Positions 32,620 to 47,814 of a DNA stretch of 55,069 nucleotides are shown in pieces. Every line of letters begins with the position of its first letter. Within the stretch, counting starts at the first letter, position 1. The notes below the pieces were generated by a model, which had not been told where the DNA came from, made no database searches, and saw nothing but the letters and a program-made list of their open reading frames with translations. A program made the translations under genes and the position numbers. Source of the stretch: a virus; IMG/VR virus record IMGVR_UViG_3300036792_000058, positions 1 through 55,069 of that record; one strand, 5' to 3'.

Positions 32620-32630
32620 CGTGTGATACA
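32602..32630 (+). promoter_or_regulatory. Candidate promoter of the Y RNA array
   Basis: TCGACA (32602) and GATACA (32625) are 17 bases apart. The predicted start (~32637) falls at the outer helix of the first Y RNA (32640). No clear promoter was seen between the later units, so one processed transcript is plausible. Confidence 0.4.
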
Positions 32631-32639
32631 GTCGGAACC

Positions 32640-32760
32640 TGGAGCCGGAAGGTACCTGGTTATCCTTCTGAACAAAGGCCCGTAGGTGGTGGAACTCCAC
32701 TGAACCCGCAAGGGTGTGCTCACTAAGCAGGGTAAACGGTCAGGTCCGTACTACGCCCCA
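32640..32760 (+). ncRNA. Y RNA 1 (Ro-binding stem plus tRNA-like insert)
   Basis: Short outer helix TGG/CCA. The 5' strand AGCCGGAAGG is followed by inner helix ACCTGG (32654) with TCAGGT (32740), then TTATC; the 3' strand is TACTACGCC. The insert holds a T-arm-like hairpin (GTGG, loop TGGAACT, CCAC at 32686-32700), a GCAA-capped hairpin (32704-32715) and TGCT/AGCA (32717-32729). This is the same arm order as in units 3, 6 and 7. The outer helix is weaker than in other units. Confidence 0.65.
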
Positions 32761-32775
32761 ACAACTACATACTTC

Positions 32776-32875
32776 GAGCGAGCCGGACAAGTGCCGGTTA
32801 TCTGCGGGAGATCGGAGGCGGCCCAGATACTTGCTGGGTGCGCACGTAAAACCCGGAACTTCCTTACGCCCGCTC
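32776..32875 (+). ncRNA. Y RNA 2
   Basis: Outer helix GAGCG/CGCTC (32776 and 32871). 5' strand AGCCGGAC; inner helix AAGT-G-CCGG with CCGG-A-ACTT (one mismatch); then TTATC. 3' strand CTTACGCC. The insert has CCCAG/CTGGG with a seven-base loop, closed by TGCG/CGCA, and lacks a clear T-arm. The outer helix differs in sequence from the other units but still pairs. Confidence 0.75.
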
Positions 32876-32878
32876 ACA

Positions 32879-32950
32879 TGCCAGGTAGCCCAAGTAGAGG
32901 CAGCCTCCAATAAGAGGAACTAAGTGGCGGTGTCGAATCCGCCCCTGGCA
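32879..32950 (+). tRNA. Degenerate tRNA or tRNA-like RNA
   Basis: 72 bases with a perfect 7-bp acceptor (TGCCAGG/CCTGGCA), TA at 8-9, and arms in normal tRNA order. It departs from a working tRNA in three places: the D-loop lacks the GG pair, the CCTC/GAGG anticodon hairpin has only six loop bases (CAATAA), and the T-loop has an extra base (TGTCGAAT). No anticodon can be assigned. Either a decayed tRNA between Y RNA genes or a tRNA mimic. Confidence 0.5.
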
Positions 32951-32970
32951 CTAGACAACTAAACAGCGTG

Positions 32971-33101
32971 ACAGTGAGCCGGATGTTGCCCGGTTATCAA
33001 TGGTTCGATTCCACTACCAGGCTCCGCTTCGGCGTACGCCTGGTGCGCAAGGCGCGCATCCCTCGCAAGAGGGAGACCCGGACACGCCTTATGCCCACTG
33101 T
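32971..33101 (+). ncRNA. Y RNA 3 with permuted tRNA-like insert
   Basis: Outer helix ACAGTG/CACTGT. 5' strand AGCCGGAT; inner CCGG/CCGG with outward pairs; TTATC; 3' strand CCTTATGCC. The insert shows T-arm TGG-TTCGATT-CCA (33001-33013), a 7-bp acceptor-like helix ACCAGGC/GCCTGGT (33016 and 33038) capped by CGC-TTCG-GCG, then a D-arm-like GCGC/GCGC hairpin (33045-33057) and a GCAA-capped hairpin. T-arm, acceptor, D-arm is the order of a circularly permuted tRNA. Confidence 0.8.
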
Positions 33102-33109
33102 GCCTCTTC

Positions 33110-33176
33110 GGTGCGAGCCGAATGCGAGCGTTATCCTTCTAAGATAAAATGCTCAAAGTAGTCTTACGCCCGCACC
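33110..33176 (+). ncRNA. Y RNA 4, short form without tRNA-like insert
   Basis: Outer helix GGTGCG/CGCACC (6 bp). 5' strand AGCCGAAT, TTATC and 3' strand CTTACGCC are kept. Inner helix GAGCG/TGCTC. Only about 20 bases lie between the two inner strands, so this 67-base RNA has the Ro-binding stem but no tRNA-like module. Confidence 0.7.
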
Positions 33177-33188
33177 TACAACTTCAGA

Positions 33189-33267
33189 GCAGAGCCGGAA
33201 CAATGGGGTTACCCTTACCAAGGTCGAAAGATCAAGGATATTTCCCCGCCGTGACCTTACGCCCTGC
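33189..33267 (+). ncRNA. Y RNA 5, short form
   Basis: Outer helix GCAG/CTGC. 5' strand AGCCGGAAC, inner GGGG/CCCC, TTACC in place of TTATC, and 3' strand CCTTACGCC. The small insert has a CCTT/AAGG hairpin and GGTC-GAAA-GATC, a GNRA-capped hairpin. Weaker pairing than the others, but all signature blocks are in register. Confidence 0.6.
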
Positions 33268-33286
33268 CCACTAACTCAATAGCGTT

Positions 33287-33437
33287 GCGGAGAGCCGGAG
33301 TTGTCCGGTTATCACTTGTTAAACTGGGTGTTGCGGGTTCAAATCCCGTCCGGGAGCCTCAGAACTTCCGGTAGCTCAAGCTGGCAGAGCACTAGTCTGA
33401 GTCCCGAAAGGGAGCCGGCGGCATCTACGCCCTCCGC
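33287..33437 (+). ncRNA. Y RNA 6 containing a full circularly permuted tRNA module
   Basis: Outer helix GCGGAG/CTCCGC, 5' strand AGCCGGAG, inner CCGG/CCGG, TTATC, 3' strand CTACGCC. The insert folds as a permuted tRNA: ACTGG (33323, anticodon-stem 3' strand), T-arm GCGGG-TTCAAAT-CCCGT (33333-33349), acceptor 3' strand CCGGGAG (33350), an eight-base linker, acceptor 5' strand CTTCCGG (33365), TA, D-arm GCTC/GAGC with GG in its loop (33374-33390), and CTAGT (33392), which pairs with ACTGG. A TCCC-GAAA-GGGA hairpin follows. The Ro stem joins at the open anticodon end. Confidence 0.85.
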
Positions 33438-33449
33438 GCCCACAGCAGC

Positions 33450-33563
33450 GAGACGAGCCGGATGTACCTGGTTATCCTTGCGAAGAATGTGGTTCGAATC
33501 CACCGGGCCTTCGGGCTTAGGGAGTGTGGCTTCTCCAGTTCCAGGTATGCTTACGCCCGTCTC
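33450..33563 (+). ncRNA. Y RNA 7, nearest to the Ro gene
   Basis: Outer helix GAGACG/CGTCTC, 5' strand AGCCGGATG, 7-bp inner helix TACCTGG/CCAGGTA (33465 and 33541), TTATC, 3' strand GCTTACGCC. The insert has T-arm GTGG-TTCGAAT-CCAC (33489-33503), a shortened acceptor hairpin capped by TTCG (33507-33516) and D-arm GGAG/CTCC with GG in the loop (33521-33536). It has the cleanest pairing and lies 26 bases before the Ro start codon. Confidence 0.85.
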
Positions 33564-33589
33564 AACTAACACACAGGAAGGAACACCCG

Positions 33590-35197
33590 ATGGCCGACGC
33601 ACTCCGCTCGTTCAGGCACGGCGTTACCCCGCAGACCGAGCAGGCCCGTCCCGACGAAGTGAAGAACAACGCCGGCGGCTACGTGTTCGAGGTTGACGAC
33701 CGCACCCGGCTCAACCGCTTCCTGACCCTCGGCACCGAGGGCGGCACGTACTACGTGGACGAGCAGAAGCTCACCCGTGACAACGCCAAGCTCGTCGTCA
33801 AGATGAGCGAGGGCAGCGACCGCAAGCTGATCATGGACACCGTGATGGTGTCGCACGACGGGCGTGCCCCGCGTAACCAGCCTGCCCTGTTCGCCATGGC
33901 GGCTGCGGCCGGACTCGGCGACACTGCCTACCGGCACGAGGCGCTGGACTTCCTGCCCCAGGTCGCGCGCACCGGCTACCACTTCCTGGTCTGGGCCGAG
34001 TACATCGAGATGTTCCGTGGCTGGGGCCCGCAACTCGTCAAGGGCGTCGCGAACTGGTACAAGATCCAGTCGCCGGAAGACCTCGCCTACCAGGTGCTGA
34101 AGTACAAGCAGCGCGAGGGCTGGTCGCAGCGCGACCTCATGCGGCTGGCCAATGGTGCCGGCGGCCTCAAGCACGGGGCCACCTCAGCGCAGGCGGCTGT
34201 GTTCGATTACGTCATGAAGGGCCACTTCGACCCTGACGCGCTGCCGCCGGTCATCGAGGCCGCCCACAAGGCGCACGAGACCCGCGACGTTCGTGAGTGG
34301 GTACGGCTGATCGAGCGCAACCGCTCGCTGTCGTGGGAGATGCTGCCCTCCGAGGCGCTGGCCAAGGCTGAGGTGTGGGTCGCGCTGATCGACAACGGGA
34401 ACCTCCCGCTCGGCGCGCTGCTGCGCAACCTGTCGCGGCTGACCCGGCTGGGTGTCATCGCCCCGATGTCCACGTACAACGCGTGGATCGCGGCCCTGCT
34501 CACTGACAAGACGGCGATCCTCAAGGCGCGCATCCACCCGATCCAGGTGCTGCTGGCGCTCAAGACCTACGCCCTGGGGCACTCAATCCAGGGCACCTCA
34601 CGGTGGCTGCCGGTCCCGCAGGTCACTGACGCGCTGAACGAGATGTTCTACCTCGCGTTCGGCAACGTGGTGCCCTCGGGCAAGCGCACGCTGATCTGCC
34701 TGGACGTGTCCAGCTCGATGAACAACACCGTCTCCGGCTACGCGTTCAAGGCGCGGGAGATCTCGGCTGCCATGGCCCTGATCACGATGAAGACCGAGCC
34801 GCAGTACGCGGCGATGGCCTTCTCCCACCAGTTCGTGCCGCTAGGCATCTCCCCCGCGCAGCGCCTGGACGACGTGGTGAACTCGATCTCCAACCTGCCG
34901 TTCGGCCGGACTGACTGCGCGCTGCCCATGGCGTGGGCCCAGTACAACAACCTGGCGGTGGACACCTTCCAGGTCTGGACGGACAACGAGACCTGGTACG
35001 GGCCCAACGGCCACCCGCACGAGGCGCTGAAGAGCTACCGCCGGGCCACCGGCATCAACGCCCGGCTCCAGGTGGCTGCGGTCACCCCGACGCAGTTCTC
35101 GATCGCGGACCCGCTGGACCCCGGTCAGCTCGACGTGTCCGGGTTCGACGCGGCGGTGCCGAAGCTGATGGCCGACCACGCTCGCGGAGACATCTGA
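33590..35197 (+). CDS. rsr: Ro60/Rsr homologue (TROVE and vWA domains)
   Basis: 535 residues from ATG 33590 with AGGAAGGAA upstream. The N-terminal ~360 residues have the Ro HEAT-repeat ring pattern (LNRFLTLGTEGGTYYVDEQ, YHFLVWAEYIEMFRGWG, WSQRDLMRLANG). A von Willebrand A domain follows with an intact MIDAS (LDVSSSMN, Asp372). Ro binds misfolded RNAs in its central hole and Y RNA on its outer face. In bacteria Rsr works with Y RNA and exoribonuclease. The adjacency to a Y RNA array fits an Rsr ribonucleoprotein. Confidence 0.95.
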   Translation: MADALRSFRHGVTPQTEQARPDEVKNNAGGYVFEVDDRTRLNRFLTLGTEGGTYYVDEQKLTRDNAKLVVKMSEGSDRKLIMDTVMVSHDGRAPRNQPALFAMAAAAGLGDTAYRHEALDFLPQVARTGYHFLVWAEYIEMFRGWGPQLVKGVANWYKIQSPEDLAYQVLKYKQREGWSQRDLMRLANGAGGLKHGATSAQAAVFDYVMKGHFDPDALPPVIEAAHKAHETRDVREWVRLIERNRSLSWEMLPSEALAKAEVWVALIDNGNLPLGALLRNLSRLTRLGVIAPMSTYNAWIAALLTDKTAILKARIHPIQVLLALKTYALGHSIQGTSRWLPVPQVTDALNEMFYLAFGNVVPSGKRTLICLDVSSSMNNTVSGYAFKAREISAAMALITMKTEPQYAAMAFSHQFVPLGISPAQRLDDVVNSISNLPFGRTDCALPMAWAQYNNLAVDTFQVWTDNETWYGPNGHPHEALKSYRRATGINARLQVAAVTPTQFSIADPLDPGQLDVSGFDAAVPKLMADHARGDI

Positions 35198-36182: not shown

Positions 36183-36785
36183 ATGGCCGACAGCAACGAC
36201 GTTCTCCAGCAGTACTACCCGTGGCTGCGGAAGACGGCAGGTAACCTGATCGGCTTTGACGACCCGTGGCTGGACGACCTGATCCAGGAGGGGTACATCG
36301 CCATGTGGCGGGCCTACCAGGACTACGACCCGGACAGGGGCCCGCTGGTGCCGCGCCTGCTGTACTGCGCCCGCAAGCGCATGGTGAACGTCGCCTACGG
36401 GGCGCACAGGTACACGGGCCACGAGCCGGCACGCGGCCATGCGGAGGCGAAGTCTCCCCTGCACTATGACGAACTCCCAGACCGCGAGTACGTGATGCCC
36501 GTGACCAGGGACGACCCGTACGTTGAGCCGTCGCTGACCGATGCCCTGGCAGCCCTGCCGCCGAAGCAGCGCGCGTACGTGTTCCTGCGGTTCTGGATAG
36601 CCAACGGCGCGTTCGGCCGCACTCCCTCGGTCATGAGGCTGCGCGAGCAGTACCCGCTGCTGGGTAACGACAAGCTCTGGCTCAGGGCCCGCGACGCACT
36701 CCGTAAAGACCCACGGGTGCGGGTGCTAGCGGGACTTCCGCCAGTAGAAATAGATGAAGACACTGCGGCGTTAGGAATAACATGA
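36183..36785 (+). CDS. Sigma-factor-like transcription regulator
   Basis: 200 residues. The N-terminus (YYPWLRKTAGNLIGFDD, LDDLIQEGYIAMWRAYQDY, PRLLYCARKRM) fits sigma-70 region 2. A central DALAALPPKQRAYVFLRFW could be region 4 start, but the usual helix-turn-helix after it is divergent (TPSVMRLREQYPLLGNDKLW). Probably redirects host RNA polymerase to phage promoters. Confidence 0.7.
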   Translation: MADSNDVLQQYYPWLRKTAGNLIGFDDPWLDDLIQEGYIAMWRAYQDYDPDRGPLVPRLLYCARKRMVNVAYGAHRYTGHEPARGHAEAKSPLHYDELPDREYVMPVTRDDPYVEPSLTDALAALPPKQRAYVFLRFWIANGAFGRTPSVMRLREQYPLLGNDKLWLRARDALRKDPRVRVLAGLPPVEIDEDTAALGIT

Positions 36786-37057
36786 CTGATTACATCGAGG
36801 GGCCCGCCAAGGGCAAGGTCCAGTTCATCAAGAACGCGGGCGGCATCCAGCTTGAGATGGTGCCCAGTCGCACGGCACCCACCGGCACGTACGTCTGCGT
36901 GGTGGACAACGGGCACTTCGAGGCCGCCGCCATAGCCAAGACCGCAGACGACCTGCAAGCGTTCAACGTTCCCACGGACGACCGCCCCAAGTGGTGGCTG
37001 CACGTGGACGACGAAACCCTCAAGAAGCTCCTGTACGAGGGAGGCAGTGCCCCGTGA
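36782..37057 (+). CDS. Hypothetical protein
   Basis: 91 residues, ATGA overlap with the previous stop. Basic start (GKVQFIKNAGGIQLEMVPS), a central strand-turn (YVCVVDNGHFEAAAIAKT) and an acidic Trp-containing end (KWWLHVDDETLKKLLYEG). No family recognised. Confidence 0.6.
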   Translation: MTDYIEGPAKGKVQFIKNAGGIQLEMVPSRTAPTGTYVCVVDNGHFEAAAIAKTADDLQAFNVPTDDRPKWWLHVDDETLKKLLYEGGSAP

Positions 37058-37146
37058 AGCACATCACCGAGCTGATCGCGTTCATCGCGGTCCTGACATT
37101 CGTCTTCCTGCTGGTCTTCCTGGCCCACAATCACTGGCACTTCTGA
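37054..37146 (+). CDS. 30-residue membrane peptide
   Basis: GTG overlaps the previous stop and its own TGA overlaps the next ATG. Almost all one TM segment (~6-24, LIAFIAVLTFVFLLVFLA) with a His/Trp end (HNHWHF). Coupling at both ends supports it being translated. Confidence 0.55.
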   Translation: MKHITELIAFIAVLTFVFLLVFLAHNHWHF

Positions 37147-38006
37147 TGAAGGAACACTACCGCCCGAAGCAGGAGAAGCGGTCGCTGGACAAGCACGCTA
37201 CCCCGTGGCACAAAGAGGTAGCCGAGCGGGGGACGATCCTGCTCACCGAGGTGGGCTCGGGCCTGCACGGCACGTCTGTCTCTGACCAGGACGACCGCGA
37301 CGAGATGGGCGTGTGCATCGAGCCGCCGGATGCCGTGATCGGCTTCAAGAGCTTCGAGCAGTACGAGTGGAAGACCGCCTGGGAGCGCGAGGGGATGCGC
37401 GCCAACCGCTCCGGTCCCGGTGACGTGGACCTGGTGGTCTACAGCCTCCGCAAGTGGATGCGGCTGGCGATGAACGGCAACCCCACCGTGCTGCTGATGC
37501 TGTTCGCCCCCAGTAACAAGATCGTCCGGCAGTCGGTCGAGGGCATCGAGCTGCGCCGGATGATGCCGCAGTACATCCTGAGCCAGCTCGCGGGCCAGCG
37601 CTTCATCGGCTACCTGCACAAGCAGCGTGAGAACCTGCTGTCTCACAATGGCAAGGGCCGGGACTGCACGCGGCCGGAGCTGATCGAGAAGTACGGCTTC
37701 GACACCAAGTTCGCCGGGCACATGATCCGGCTGGGCATCCAGGGGCTGGAACTTCTGAACACGGGCAAGATCACGCTGCCGATGACCTCGGCCGACGCCT
37801 ACCTGATCAAGGCGATCCGCACCGGGAACTACAAGATGGACGAGTGCCTGGCCATGGCAGAGATCCTGGAGGAAGACCTGGTTACCCTGATGGCCTCCGG
37901 CAAGTCCCCGCTGCGGCCGGAACCTGCCTACGAGGAGATCGACAAGTGGCTGGCGGCCATCTACCAGTGGCGCTGGACAACGGACGCAATCAACCAGGAG
38001 GAATGA
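37146..38006 (+). CDS. RlaP-like nucleotidyltransferase (DNA polymerase beta superfamily)
   Basis: 286 residues from ATG 37146. GSGLHGTSVSDQDDRDEMGV (~37-56) matches the GS...D-x-D nucleotidyltransferase motif as seen in the RlaP family, where the name means RNA ligase-associated protein. DVDLVVYSLRKWMRLAMNGNP and the HMIRLGIQGLELLNTG helix also fit that family. It lies 2 kb after the Ro gene, so a role in RNA end repair or tailing is an inference. Confidence 0.7.
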   Translation: MKEHYRPKQEKRSLDKHATPWHKEVAERGTILLTEVGSGLHGTSVSDQDDRDEMGVCIEPPDAVIGFKSFEQYEWKTAWEREGMRANRSGPGDVDLVVYSLRKWMRLAMNGNPTVLLMLFAPSNKIVRQSVEGIELRRMMPQYILSQLAGQRFIGYLHKQRENLLSHNGKGRDCTRPELIEKYGFDTKFAGHMIRLGIQGLELLNTGKITLPMTSADAYLIKAIRTGNYKMDECLAMAEILEEDLVTLMASGKSPLRPEPAYEEIDKWLAAIYQWRWTTDAINQEE

Positions 38007-38380
38007 TGGTCTACGTCGCGTCCCTCTGTCACCACATAGAAGAGGGCACTACCGTCCGGATCGAGGAAGTCAGCCTCTGGCACCTGTACAAGGAACACCT
38101 GGGCGACTGGGTGTTCGGTGCGATGTCGCGTATCCAGTACGACTGGATGTACGAGGTGCGCTGGGGACGCAAGGACCCCGACTGGGGGCTAGCCGACCAC
38201 AGCCTGGGGCACCTGCTGTTCGCCTTTTCCCAGTGGTGCGGCAACGGCTTCGGGCACTGGCACGACCGGAAGCTGATTGCTTCCTTCCCGGTGACGCCTG
38301 AATGGGTGCGCGAGCACATGCCTGAGCTAGGATGGCCTTGGGACGGCAGCGAACTTGACTGTGAGGAGGGTTCACAGTGA
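38003..38380 (+). CDS. Hypothetical protein rich in His and Trp
   Basis: 125 residues from ATG-ATG at 38003 or 38006, overlapping the previous stop. Contains LWHLYKEHLGDWVFGAMSR, LGHLLFAFSQWCGNG and HWHDRKL. Frequent aromatic and His residues suggest a metal or hydrophobic core, but no family is recognised. Confidence 0.6.
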   Translation: MMVYVASLCHHIEEGTTVRIEEVSLWHLYKEHLGDWVFGAMSRIQYDWMYEVRWGRKDPDWGLADHSLGHLLFAFSQWCGNGFGHWHDRKLIASFPVTPEWVREHMPELGWPWDGSELDCEEGSQ

Positions 38381-38832
38381 CGGCCCTGACTGAGCACCTG
38401 ATGCCGTGGTACCCGTTCGAGGACGCGAGCATCATCATCCCGTCGCGCGTCTACTGGAGATCTGAGCACCCGCTGGAGATCGTCATCGTCTTCGGCACCA
38501 CCGTTGACGAGGCAGACAACCCGGACTACAACGACCCGGACGCCAGCCACATCAGGTGGGTGTTCAGCCGGGAGCTGCTGACCGAGGCGCGGATGAAGGG
38601 CAAGGCGGGCATCGGGGACGTGCACGTGGAGATCACCCGCGACACGATGTTCCTCACCCTCACCAGCCCGTTCGGCGAGGTCAAGCTTCGAACGGTGTCC
38701 CGGCTCATGGAGGAGTTCATCAGGCGCACGTACGAGGTGACGAACTCCGAAGCCGAGGAAGGGGCCATGCCGCTGACGGACATCGAGCTTCAGTTGATCG
38801 TGCGCGAGTGGGAGGGCAAGAGCTTTGATTGA
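38377..38832 (+). CDS. SsgA-like protein (SALP)
   Basis: 151 residues. The pattern IIPSRVYWRSEHPLEIVIVF, IRWVFSRELLTEARMKG, GIGDVHVEIT, FLTLTSPFGEVKL and MEEFIRRTYEV matches the SsgA family. SsgA-like proteins control septum placement and sporulation in streptomycetes and relatives. Length is normal for the family. A phage copy could delay sporulation, relocate division proteins, or aid release from mycelium. Confidence 0.8.
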   Translation: MTALTEHLMPWYPFEDASIIIPSRVYWRSEHPLEIVIVFGTTVDEADNPDYNDPDASHIRWVFSRELLTEARMKGKAGIGDVHVEITRDTMFLTLTSPFGEVKLRTVSRLMEEFIRRTYEVTNSEAEEGAMPLTDIELQLIVREWEGKSFD

Positions 38833-47785: not shown

Positions 47786-47814
47786 ACTATACACACCAAC
47801 CCGGACATTTCAGC
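47786..47814 (-). promoter_or_regulatory. Candidate minus-strand promoter of 47670-46328 operon
   Basis: A minus-strand TATAGT (47786-47791 on plus) is the only good -10 upstream of the proline-rich gene. TGAAAT or GCTGAA lie 15 to 17 bases further up. The start codon is ~115 bases away, so a long leader is implied. Confidence 0.35.

What the first reader, a model, noticed from the sequence alone, without database searches (positions are those of the whole stretch)
32640..33563. Array of seven Y RNA genes upstream of a phage Ro60 gene
Seven times in ~920 bases the same plan recurs: outer helix, AGCCGGA (once AGCCGAA), inner helix, TTATC (once TTACC), insert, inner helix, a TTACGCC-like strand, outer helix. 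Outer helices differ (for example GAGCG/CGCTC, ACAGTG/CACTGT, GGTGCG/CGCACC, GCGGAG/CTCCGC, GAGACG/CGTCTC) yet always pair. That is covariation, seen directly. Established: animal Y RNAs carry a similar CCGA...GTTATC strand in the Ro-binding stem, and bacterial Y RNAs lie near rsr. Inference: this is a Y RNA multigene array serving the downstream Ro. Bacterial operons usually have one or two Y RNAs, so seven diverse units is unusual to my knowledge.
Basis: partly seen in the sequence, partly recalled or inferred. Interest (0 to 1): 0.96.

Follow-up and report, generated by a model that had tools for sequence, protein, structure and literature searches.

The report
Phage Y RNA array beside Ro
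An actinobacterial phage carries a tightly packed row of six clear small-RNA genes, plus one worn one, of the Y RNA type just ahead of its Ro60-like gene; the arrangement is real, but arrays of three to nine such RNAs turn out to be normal in related phages and bacteria.

Summary
Between 32640 and 33563 seven units share one plan: outer helix, AGCCGGA strand, inner helix, GGTTATC, insert, inner helix, TTACGCC strand, outer helix. Outer strands pair unit by unit: only 1 of 5040 orderings reaches the observed score. A covariance model built from 66 units of other phages and bacteria, window held out, finds six units (E 1.9e-10 to 0.059 over 55 kb). Unit 1 is marginal (16.2 bits, 3-bp outer helix). 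The next gene (33590-35197) is Ro60 (Pfam vWA_Ro60 4.9e-57, TROVE 2e-37; best solved relative D. radiodurans Rsr, 5.2e-105). Some inserts carry a tRNA-like T-arm, as in YrlA; unit 6 hits Rfam YrlA below threshold.

The Y RNA reading is therefore supported. The claim that seven is exceptional is not: one viral contig has nine, Mycobacterium abscessus prophages have seven, and two Anaerolineae genomes have seven. Y RNAs in bacteria and mycobacteriophages are already published. This is a large, diverse member of a known kind. Expression, Ro binding and function are untested.

Side lead: a TGTA-N6-TACA palindrome ahead of Y-Ro operons goes with a ~70-aa HTH gene behind Ro (26 of 27 bacterial loci with the gene, 0 of 46 without). 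The window lacks both.

The parts
32627..32632 (+). -10-like TACAGT just before unit 1 (possible promoter of the array)
   Evidence: TACAGT lies within 60 nt upstream of the first Y unit in 22 of 78 loci against 0.33% of random positions; the sigma-70 consensus scan itself found nothing. Inference.
32640..32760 (+). Y RNA unit 1, probably degenerate (outer helix 3 bp; T-arm-like hairpin 32686-32700 with loop TGGAACT)
   Evidence: 5' core and CTACGCC strand present; held-out model 16.2 bits, E 0.027 in 5 kb unfiltered; not found by the default search
32776..32875 (+). Y RNA unit 2 (outer helix GAGCG/CGCTC; no T-arm seen)
   Evidence: held-out model 32.8 bits, E 1.5e-4
32879..32950 (+). tRNA-like cloverleaf between units 2 and 3 (7-bp acceptor-like stem, 5-bp T-like stem, 8-nt loop), probably a decayed tRNA
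   Evidence: minimum-energy fold is a cloverleaf, z -1.95; not called by ARAGORN or Rfam
32971..33101 (+). Y RNA unit 3 (outer helix ACAGTG/CACTGT; T-loop TTCGATT at 33004-33010)
   Evidence: held-out model 44.2 bits, E 7.5e-7
33110..33176 (+). Y RNA unit 4, short form (outer helix GGTGCG/CGCACC, AGCCGAA variant, no tRNA-like module)
   Evidence: held-out model 19.7 bits, E 0.059; fold z -2.91
33189..33267 (+). Y RNA unit 5, short form (outer helix GCAG/CTGC, TTACC variant)
   Evidence: held-out model 28.1 bits, E 0.0013
33286..33438 (+). Y RNA unit 6, long YrlA-like form (T-arm 33333-33349, D-arm 33374-33390)
   Evidence: held-out model 62.1 bits, E 1.9e-10; Rfam YrlA 35.2 bits, E 1.1e-5, below gathering score 69
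33450..33563 (+). Y RNA unit 7 (outer helix GAGACG/CGTCTC; T-arm-like hairpin 33489-33503)
   Evidence: held-out model 47.9 bits, E 1.4e-7
33590..35197 (+). Ro60/Rsr protein gene (535 aa), 26 nt after unit 7, with GGAAGG ribosome-binding site at 33576-33581
   Evidence: Pfam vWA_Ro60 4.9e-57 and TROVE 2e-37; PHROG RNA-binding protein 9e-79; PDB 2nvo Rsr 5.2e-105 and 1yvp Ro 9e-105
37047..38006 (+). RlaP-type nucleotidyltransferase (RNA repair family), downstream neighbour
   Evidence: Pfam RlaP 2.9e-28; also near Ro in L041, L066, L137, L160, L170, L173

Best explanation
The region is a phage Y RNA gene array that works with the Ro60 protein encoded just downstream. Shown by sequence: six clear units and one worn unit with a covarying Ro-type stem, tightly packed and in the same direction as ro. 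Inferred: they are made as one precursor from a promoter before unit 1, probably cut in the short linkers, and each mature RNA binds the Ro ring through its lower stem. The insert of each unit then acts as a gate or adaptor. In the long units the tRNA-like insert would recruit a host enzyme, most likely polynucleotide phosphorylase as in the Deinococcus Ro/Y RNA/PNPase machine, while the short units may only close or stabilise Ro. The phage would use this to steer decay or quality control of structured RNA during infection. The stated confidence is for the Y RNA/Ro partnership; for the PNPase-type mechanism it is about 0.5.
For: Unit-specific pairing; held-out covariance model finds six units and all seven unfiltered; wide covariation in 66 units from other loci, 95% of cells paired, 18 of 23 pairs with double changes, score 0.477 against 0.146 shuffled; all matches listed in 178 Ro-bearing loci lie on the Ro-sense strand, mostly next to ro; Ro60 gene adjacent; T-arm and D-arm in unit 6 match Rfam YrlA, and relatives match YrlA over its full length (L035 51.3 bits); no terminator-like site in the array. 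Literature: the basal stem of YrlA binds Rsr and the tRNA-like domain binds PNPase (PMC8394870); Y RNAs reported in bacteria and mycobacteriophages (PMC12282133); Ro60 RNPs with Y RNAs immunoprecipitated from P. propionicum (PMC11277228), now Arachnia propionica (from memory), two strains of which (L035, L039) are recognised by the model (one L039 unit was among its seeds).
Against: No expression or binding data. Unit 1 is barely supported. Only units 1, 3, 6 and 7 show a T-arm-like hairpin and only unit 6 a clear D-arm, so PNPase recruitment by most units is doubtful. In the window Ro, residue 188, in the segment aligned with the usual RLxH, is N instead of the common H, with a 5-residue insertion after it; from memory, the vertebrate histidine here (H187) matters for Y RNA binding. 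Mycobacterial Ro proteins with S or G there still have Y RNA units nearby, so this does not exclude binding. No phage PNPase was found in the genes checked.
Confidence: 0.85

Rival explanations
1. The units are not separate RNAs but tandem Ro-binding sites in the long 5' leader of the ro mRNA, through which Ro controls its own translation or mRNA stability.
For: The array ends 26 nt before the ro start codon with no terminator between; tight head-to-tail packing.
Against: In relatives the same units also lie downstream of ro (L091, L095, L098) and between tRNA genes away from ro (L012, L020, L009); tRNA-like modules are not needed for a leader site.
Confidence: 0.08
2. The array is a decayed tRNA cluster whose remnants resemble Y RNAs.
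For: A degenerate cloverleaf lies between units 2 and 3; T-loops remain in several units; relatives have tRNA genes beside the array.
Against: The conserved part is the Ro-type stem, not the cloverleaf; its covariation is maintained; ARAGORN finds no tRNA.
Confidence: 0.03
3. The Y RNAs are decoys: their tRNA-like inserts soak up host anticodon nucleases or other tRNA-targeting defence enzymes, with Ro as stabiliser and the neighbouring RlaP acting in RNA repair. This accepts the Y RNA identity but gives it a different function.
For: T-arm and D-arm mimicry; RlaP neighbour here and in six other loci; competitive inhibition of an anticodon nuclease by the YrlA tRNA-like domain was raised in PMC7790460.
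Against: Three units show no T-arm; no direct evidence; RlaP-like genes are widespread in phages (468 records), so the neighbourhood may be chance.
Confidence: 0.15

Closest known systems
Bacterial Y RNAs of the YrlA type (Rfam RF02553; Salmonella YrlA, mycobacterial Yrl RNAs)
   Same: Ro-type basal stem; insert with T-arm and D-arm in unit 6; encoded next to a Ro60 ortholog
   Different: Scores below Rfam's gathering threshold; seven tandem units of varied length, several with a partial tRNA-like module or none
Actinophage and prophage Y-Ro loci (Mycobacterium phages Sparky and Tonenili, Gordonia phages BearBQ and Sixama, M. abscessus prophages)
   Same: Same 5' and 3' strands and helices, same position before ro; two to nine units
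   Different: Window units are more divergent from the consensus; no small HTH gene or TGTA-N6-TACA operator; no tRNA gene called in the window
Vertebrate Y RNAs (hY1 and others)
   Same: From memory: CCGA strand, then a stem, then GUUAUC in the Ro-binding stem
   Different: Different upper domain, not homologous with the bacterial ones according to PMC4726728; no Rfam Y_RNA match here
Deinococcus radiodurans RYPER (Rsr, Y RNA, PNPase)
   Same: Rsr is the best solved relative of the window Ro protein
   Different: Whether phage Ro pairs with host PNPase is untested

Membership tests
Bacterial Y RNA (Ro-partner RNA) | Encoded next to a Ro60/Rsr gene | tested here: met
   Ro60 gene starts 26 nt after unit 7
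Bacterial Y RNA (Ro-partner RNA) | Basal stem formed by 5' and 3' ends with conserved internal strands, supported by covariation | tested here: met
   unit 1 only weakly
Bacterial Y RNA (Ro-partner RNA) | Binds the Ro protein | not testable with these tools
   needs pull-down or gel shift
Bacterial Y RNA (Ro-partner RNA) | Transcribed as a small RNA | not testable with these tools
   no RNA data for this metagenomic virus
YrlA (RF02553) | At least one unit with a tRNA-like domain (T-arm and D-arm) | tested here: met
   unit 6 33325-33394, positions 23-85 of 114 of the model, E 1.1e-5
YrlA (RF02553) | Reaches Rfam's gathering score (69 bits) | tested here: not met
   35.2 bits; in a sample of 14 actinobacterial and phage Y loci none reached it either, so the curated model looks too narrow for this branch
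Ro60/Rsr protein | TROVE ring plus vWA domain with DxSxS metal-site motif | tested here: met
   (LDVSSSM)
Ro60/Rsr protein | Histidine after RLx in the segment corresponding to the vertebrate Y-RNA contact (H187, from memory) | tested here: not met
   N188 in the window with a 5-residue insertion; H in most relatives, but G or S in mycobacterial loci that keep Y RNA units, so it is not an obligatory feature
RYPER-type machine | Y RNA tethers PNPase | not testable with these tools
   inference from the tRNA-like module only

The most novel reading that the evidence does not exclude
The array is a diversified adaptor set: one phage Ro ring served by six or seven Y RNAs with selectively different inserts (full tRNA-like, T-arm only, none), so that Ro can be coupled to different host enzymes or substrates in one infection, or evade a host factor that recognises one of them.
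Probability: 0.25. Interest if true: 0.65.

Novelty: new member of a known kind. Interest (0 to 1): 0.4.

Why it matters
It shows that multi-copy Y RNA arrays are common rather than exceptional in actinobacterial viruses and hosts, that Rfam's current models miss them, and it gives a calibrated model to find them. Phages with many divergent Y RNAs per Ro are a natural experiment on what the Y RNA insert does, an open question in Ro biology.

Tried and rejected
Rfam at gathering threshold: no match in the window, and no Y RNA in 14 relatives. A home-made motif scanner gave too many chance matches at loose settings and was kept only for picking seeds and a rough tally. The first genome scan with a single protein found nothing; the alignment query worked. 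Sigma-70 promoter and terminator scan: none. A second Y-like core at 47812 was not found by the model. Rejected: group II intron and RNA-thermometer matches (below threshold). Chen et al. 2014 and Sim & Wolin 2018 are not held, so their counts of Y RNAs per genome could not be checked.

Full report
Observation. The seven units described are in the sequence at the stated place. Defining the 5' strand only by AGCCG(G/A)A and the 3' strand only by (T/C)TA(C/T)GCC gives seven of each between 32643 and 33557, strictly alternating. The six bases flanking them form 37 of 42 possible pairs in the true order; of all 5040 ways of matching 5' to 3' strands only the true one reaches 37. Inner helices are also best with their own partner (7 of 5040 orders as good). 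Unit 1 is the exception: three outer pairs only. Its outer strand ACCTGG repeats its own inner strand and could pair six bases with CCAGGT at 32881-32886 instead (direct reading), so it looks worn.

Relatives. The window is an IMG/VR virus record. A tblastn search with the Ro protein finds 344 phage records, mostly Mycobacterium and Streptomyces phages, at under 60% identity. With an alignment query (A1), 80 bacterial and 80 viral loci were fetched. The same 5' and 3' strands occur near ro in most of them.

Independent test. 66 units from other loci, none from the window, were aligned. Seven outer, seven inner, five T-arm and four D-arm pairs were counted: 95% of cells pair, 18 of 23 pairs show double changes, covariation score 0.477 against 0.146 for shuffles and at most 0.104 for slid partners. 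Seeds had been picked with an outer-helix requirement, so helix 1 is favoured by selection there; the window test is free of that. The covariance model R1 then found six window units over the whole 55 kb (62.1, 47.9, 44.2, 32.8, 28.1 and 19.7 bits; E 1.9e-10 to 0.059) and nothing else up to E = 10. Unfiltered over 5 kb it also gave unit 1, at 16.2 bits, beside a 15.8-bit minus-strand match. Aligned to R1, the seven window units themselves show 14 of 23 pairs with double changes (2 of 500 shuffles as high); that alignment is fitted to the structure and leans towards it.

How unusual is seven? In R1 searches of 178 loci all listed matches are on the Ro-sense strand. Counted by eye from those tables as full-length matches near ro: L109 nine; L145, L146 and L127 seven; L095 and L098 (Anaerolineae) seven; L018, L091, L102, L121, L158, L169 and L171 six. 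Seven is therefore high but inside the normal range. Y RNAs in bacteria and mycobacteriophages are published; the primary paper (Chen et al. 2014) is not held, but PMC12282133 states it, and that paper also proposes Y RNAs near an Rsr-like gene in a Listeria phage.

Anatomy. Unit 6 has a T-arm and a D-arm and hits Rfam YrlA at 35.2 bits, below its threshold of 69; relatives do likewise, L035 over the full model length at 51.3 bits. Units 3 and 7 keep a T-loop (TTCGATT, TTCGAAT). Unit 1 has a 7-nt TGGAACT loop that recurs in L105. Units 2, 4 and 5 show none. A degenerate cloverleaf lies between units 2 and 3. Spacing between units is 8-18 nt except for that gap; unit 7 ends 26 nt before the ro start codon, with a ribosome-binding site between, and no terminator-like site lies in the array. 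This fits one transcript carrying Y RNAs and ro, cut in the linkers (inference).

Ro protein. Pfam, PHROG and PDB matches are unambiguous. The metal-site motif DVSSSM is present. At residue 188, where most relatives have H (RLxH), the window has N followed by a 5-residue insertion; G or S is found in mycobacterial and M. abscessus prophage loci that keep Y RNA units, so the change is notable but does not exclude binding.

Function. From the literature, the basal stem of YrlA binds Rsr and the tRNA-like part binds PNPase, giving a machine for structured-RNA decay (PMC8394870). By analogy the phage would tune RNA decay or quality control; a role as a decoy for tRNA-cutting enzymes is a serious rival, favoured by the RlaP neighbour. 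Neither was tested.

Side finding. Upstream of the first unit, 21 of 78 loci have TGTA-N6-TACA within 90 nt (0.37 expected), usually overlapping TACAGT. A small protein of about 70 aa with weak HTH similarity lies just behind ro in many loci. Looking up to 1.3 kb upstream of ro, the palindrome is present in 26 of 27 bacterial loci with this gene and 0 of 46 without (all loci: 42 of 58 against 5 of 100). Related genomes are not independent, but the pattern points to a regulator and its operator. The window lacks both.

Verdict. A real and well-supported phage Y RNA array; a new, divergent and large member of a known kind.

Noticed in passing
L007 5586-5798, L008 5634-5840, L025, L035, L041, L047, L066, L072, L107, L108, L111-L113, L115, L117, L119, L126, L128, L132 and others; up to 1.3 kb upstream of ro and just downstream of ro: Palindrome TGTA-N6-TACA before the first Y unit co-occurs with a ~70-aa HTH-like gene right behind ro (bacterial loci 26/27 with the gene against 0/46 without; all loci 42/58 against 5/100). 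Candidate regulator and operator of Y-Ro operons, shared by phages and hosts; absent from the window.
   Followed up: partly
L012 6430-7180, L020 5390-6026, L009 6187-6350: Y RNA-like units sit between tRNA genes downstream of ro in Gordonia phages Sixama, Forza and GMA2, and a tmRNA gene lies in GMA2 and Sixama.
   Followed up: partly
L009 6491-6547: Pistol ribozyme above Rfam threshold (56.8 bits) inside the tRNA array of Gordonia phage GMA2.
   Followed up: no
window 37047-38006: RlaP-type RNA-repair nucleotidyltransferase near ro; also near ro in six other loci, in Nocardioides L041 and L066 just before the Y array.
   Followed up: partly
window 38377-38832: SsgA-like protein (Pfam PF04686, 1.8e-12), a family of sporulating actinomycetes, which hints at a Streptomyces-like host.
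   Followed up: no
window 36183-36785: Small sigma-70 region 2 protein downstream of ro; may direct phage transcription.
   Followed up: no
L035 3342-3475: Arachnia Y RNA also scores 35 bits with the nematode small-RNA family RF01656, just below its threshold of 38, a hint of how far the Ro stem is conserved.
   Followed up: no
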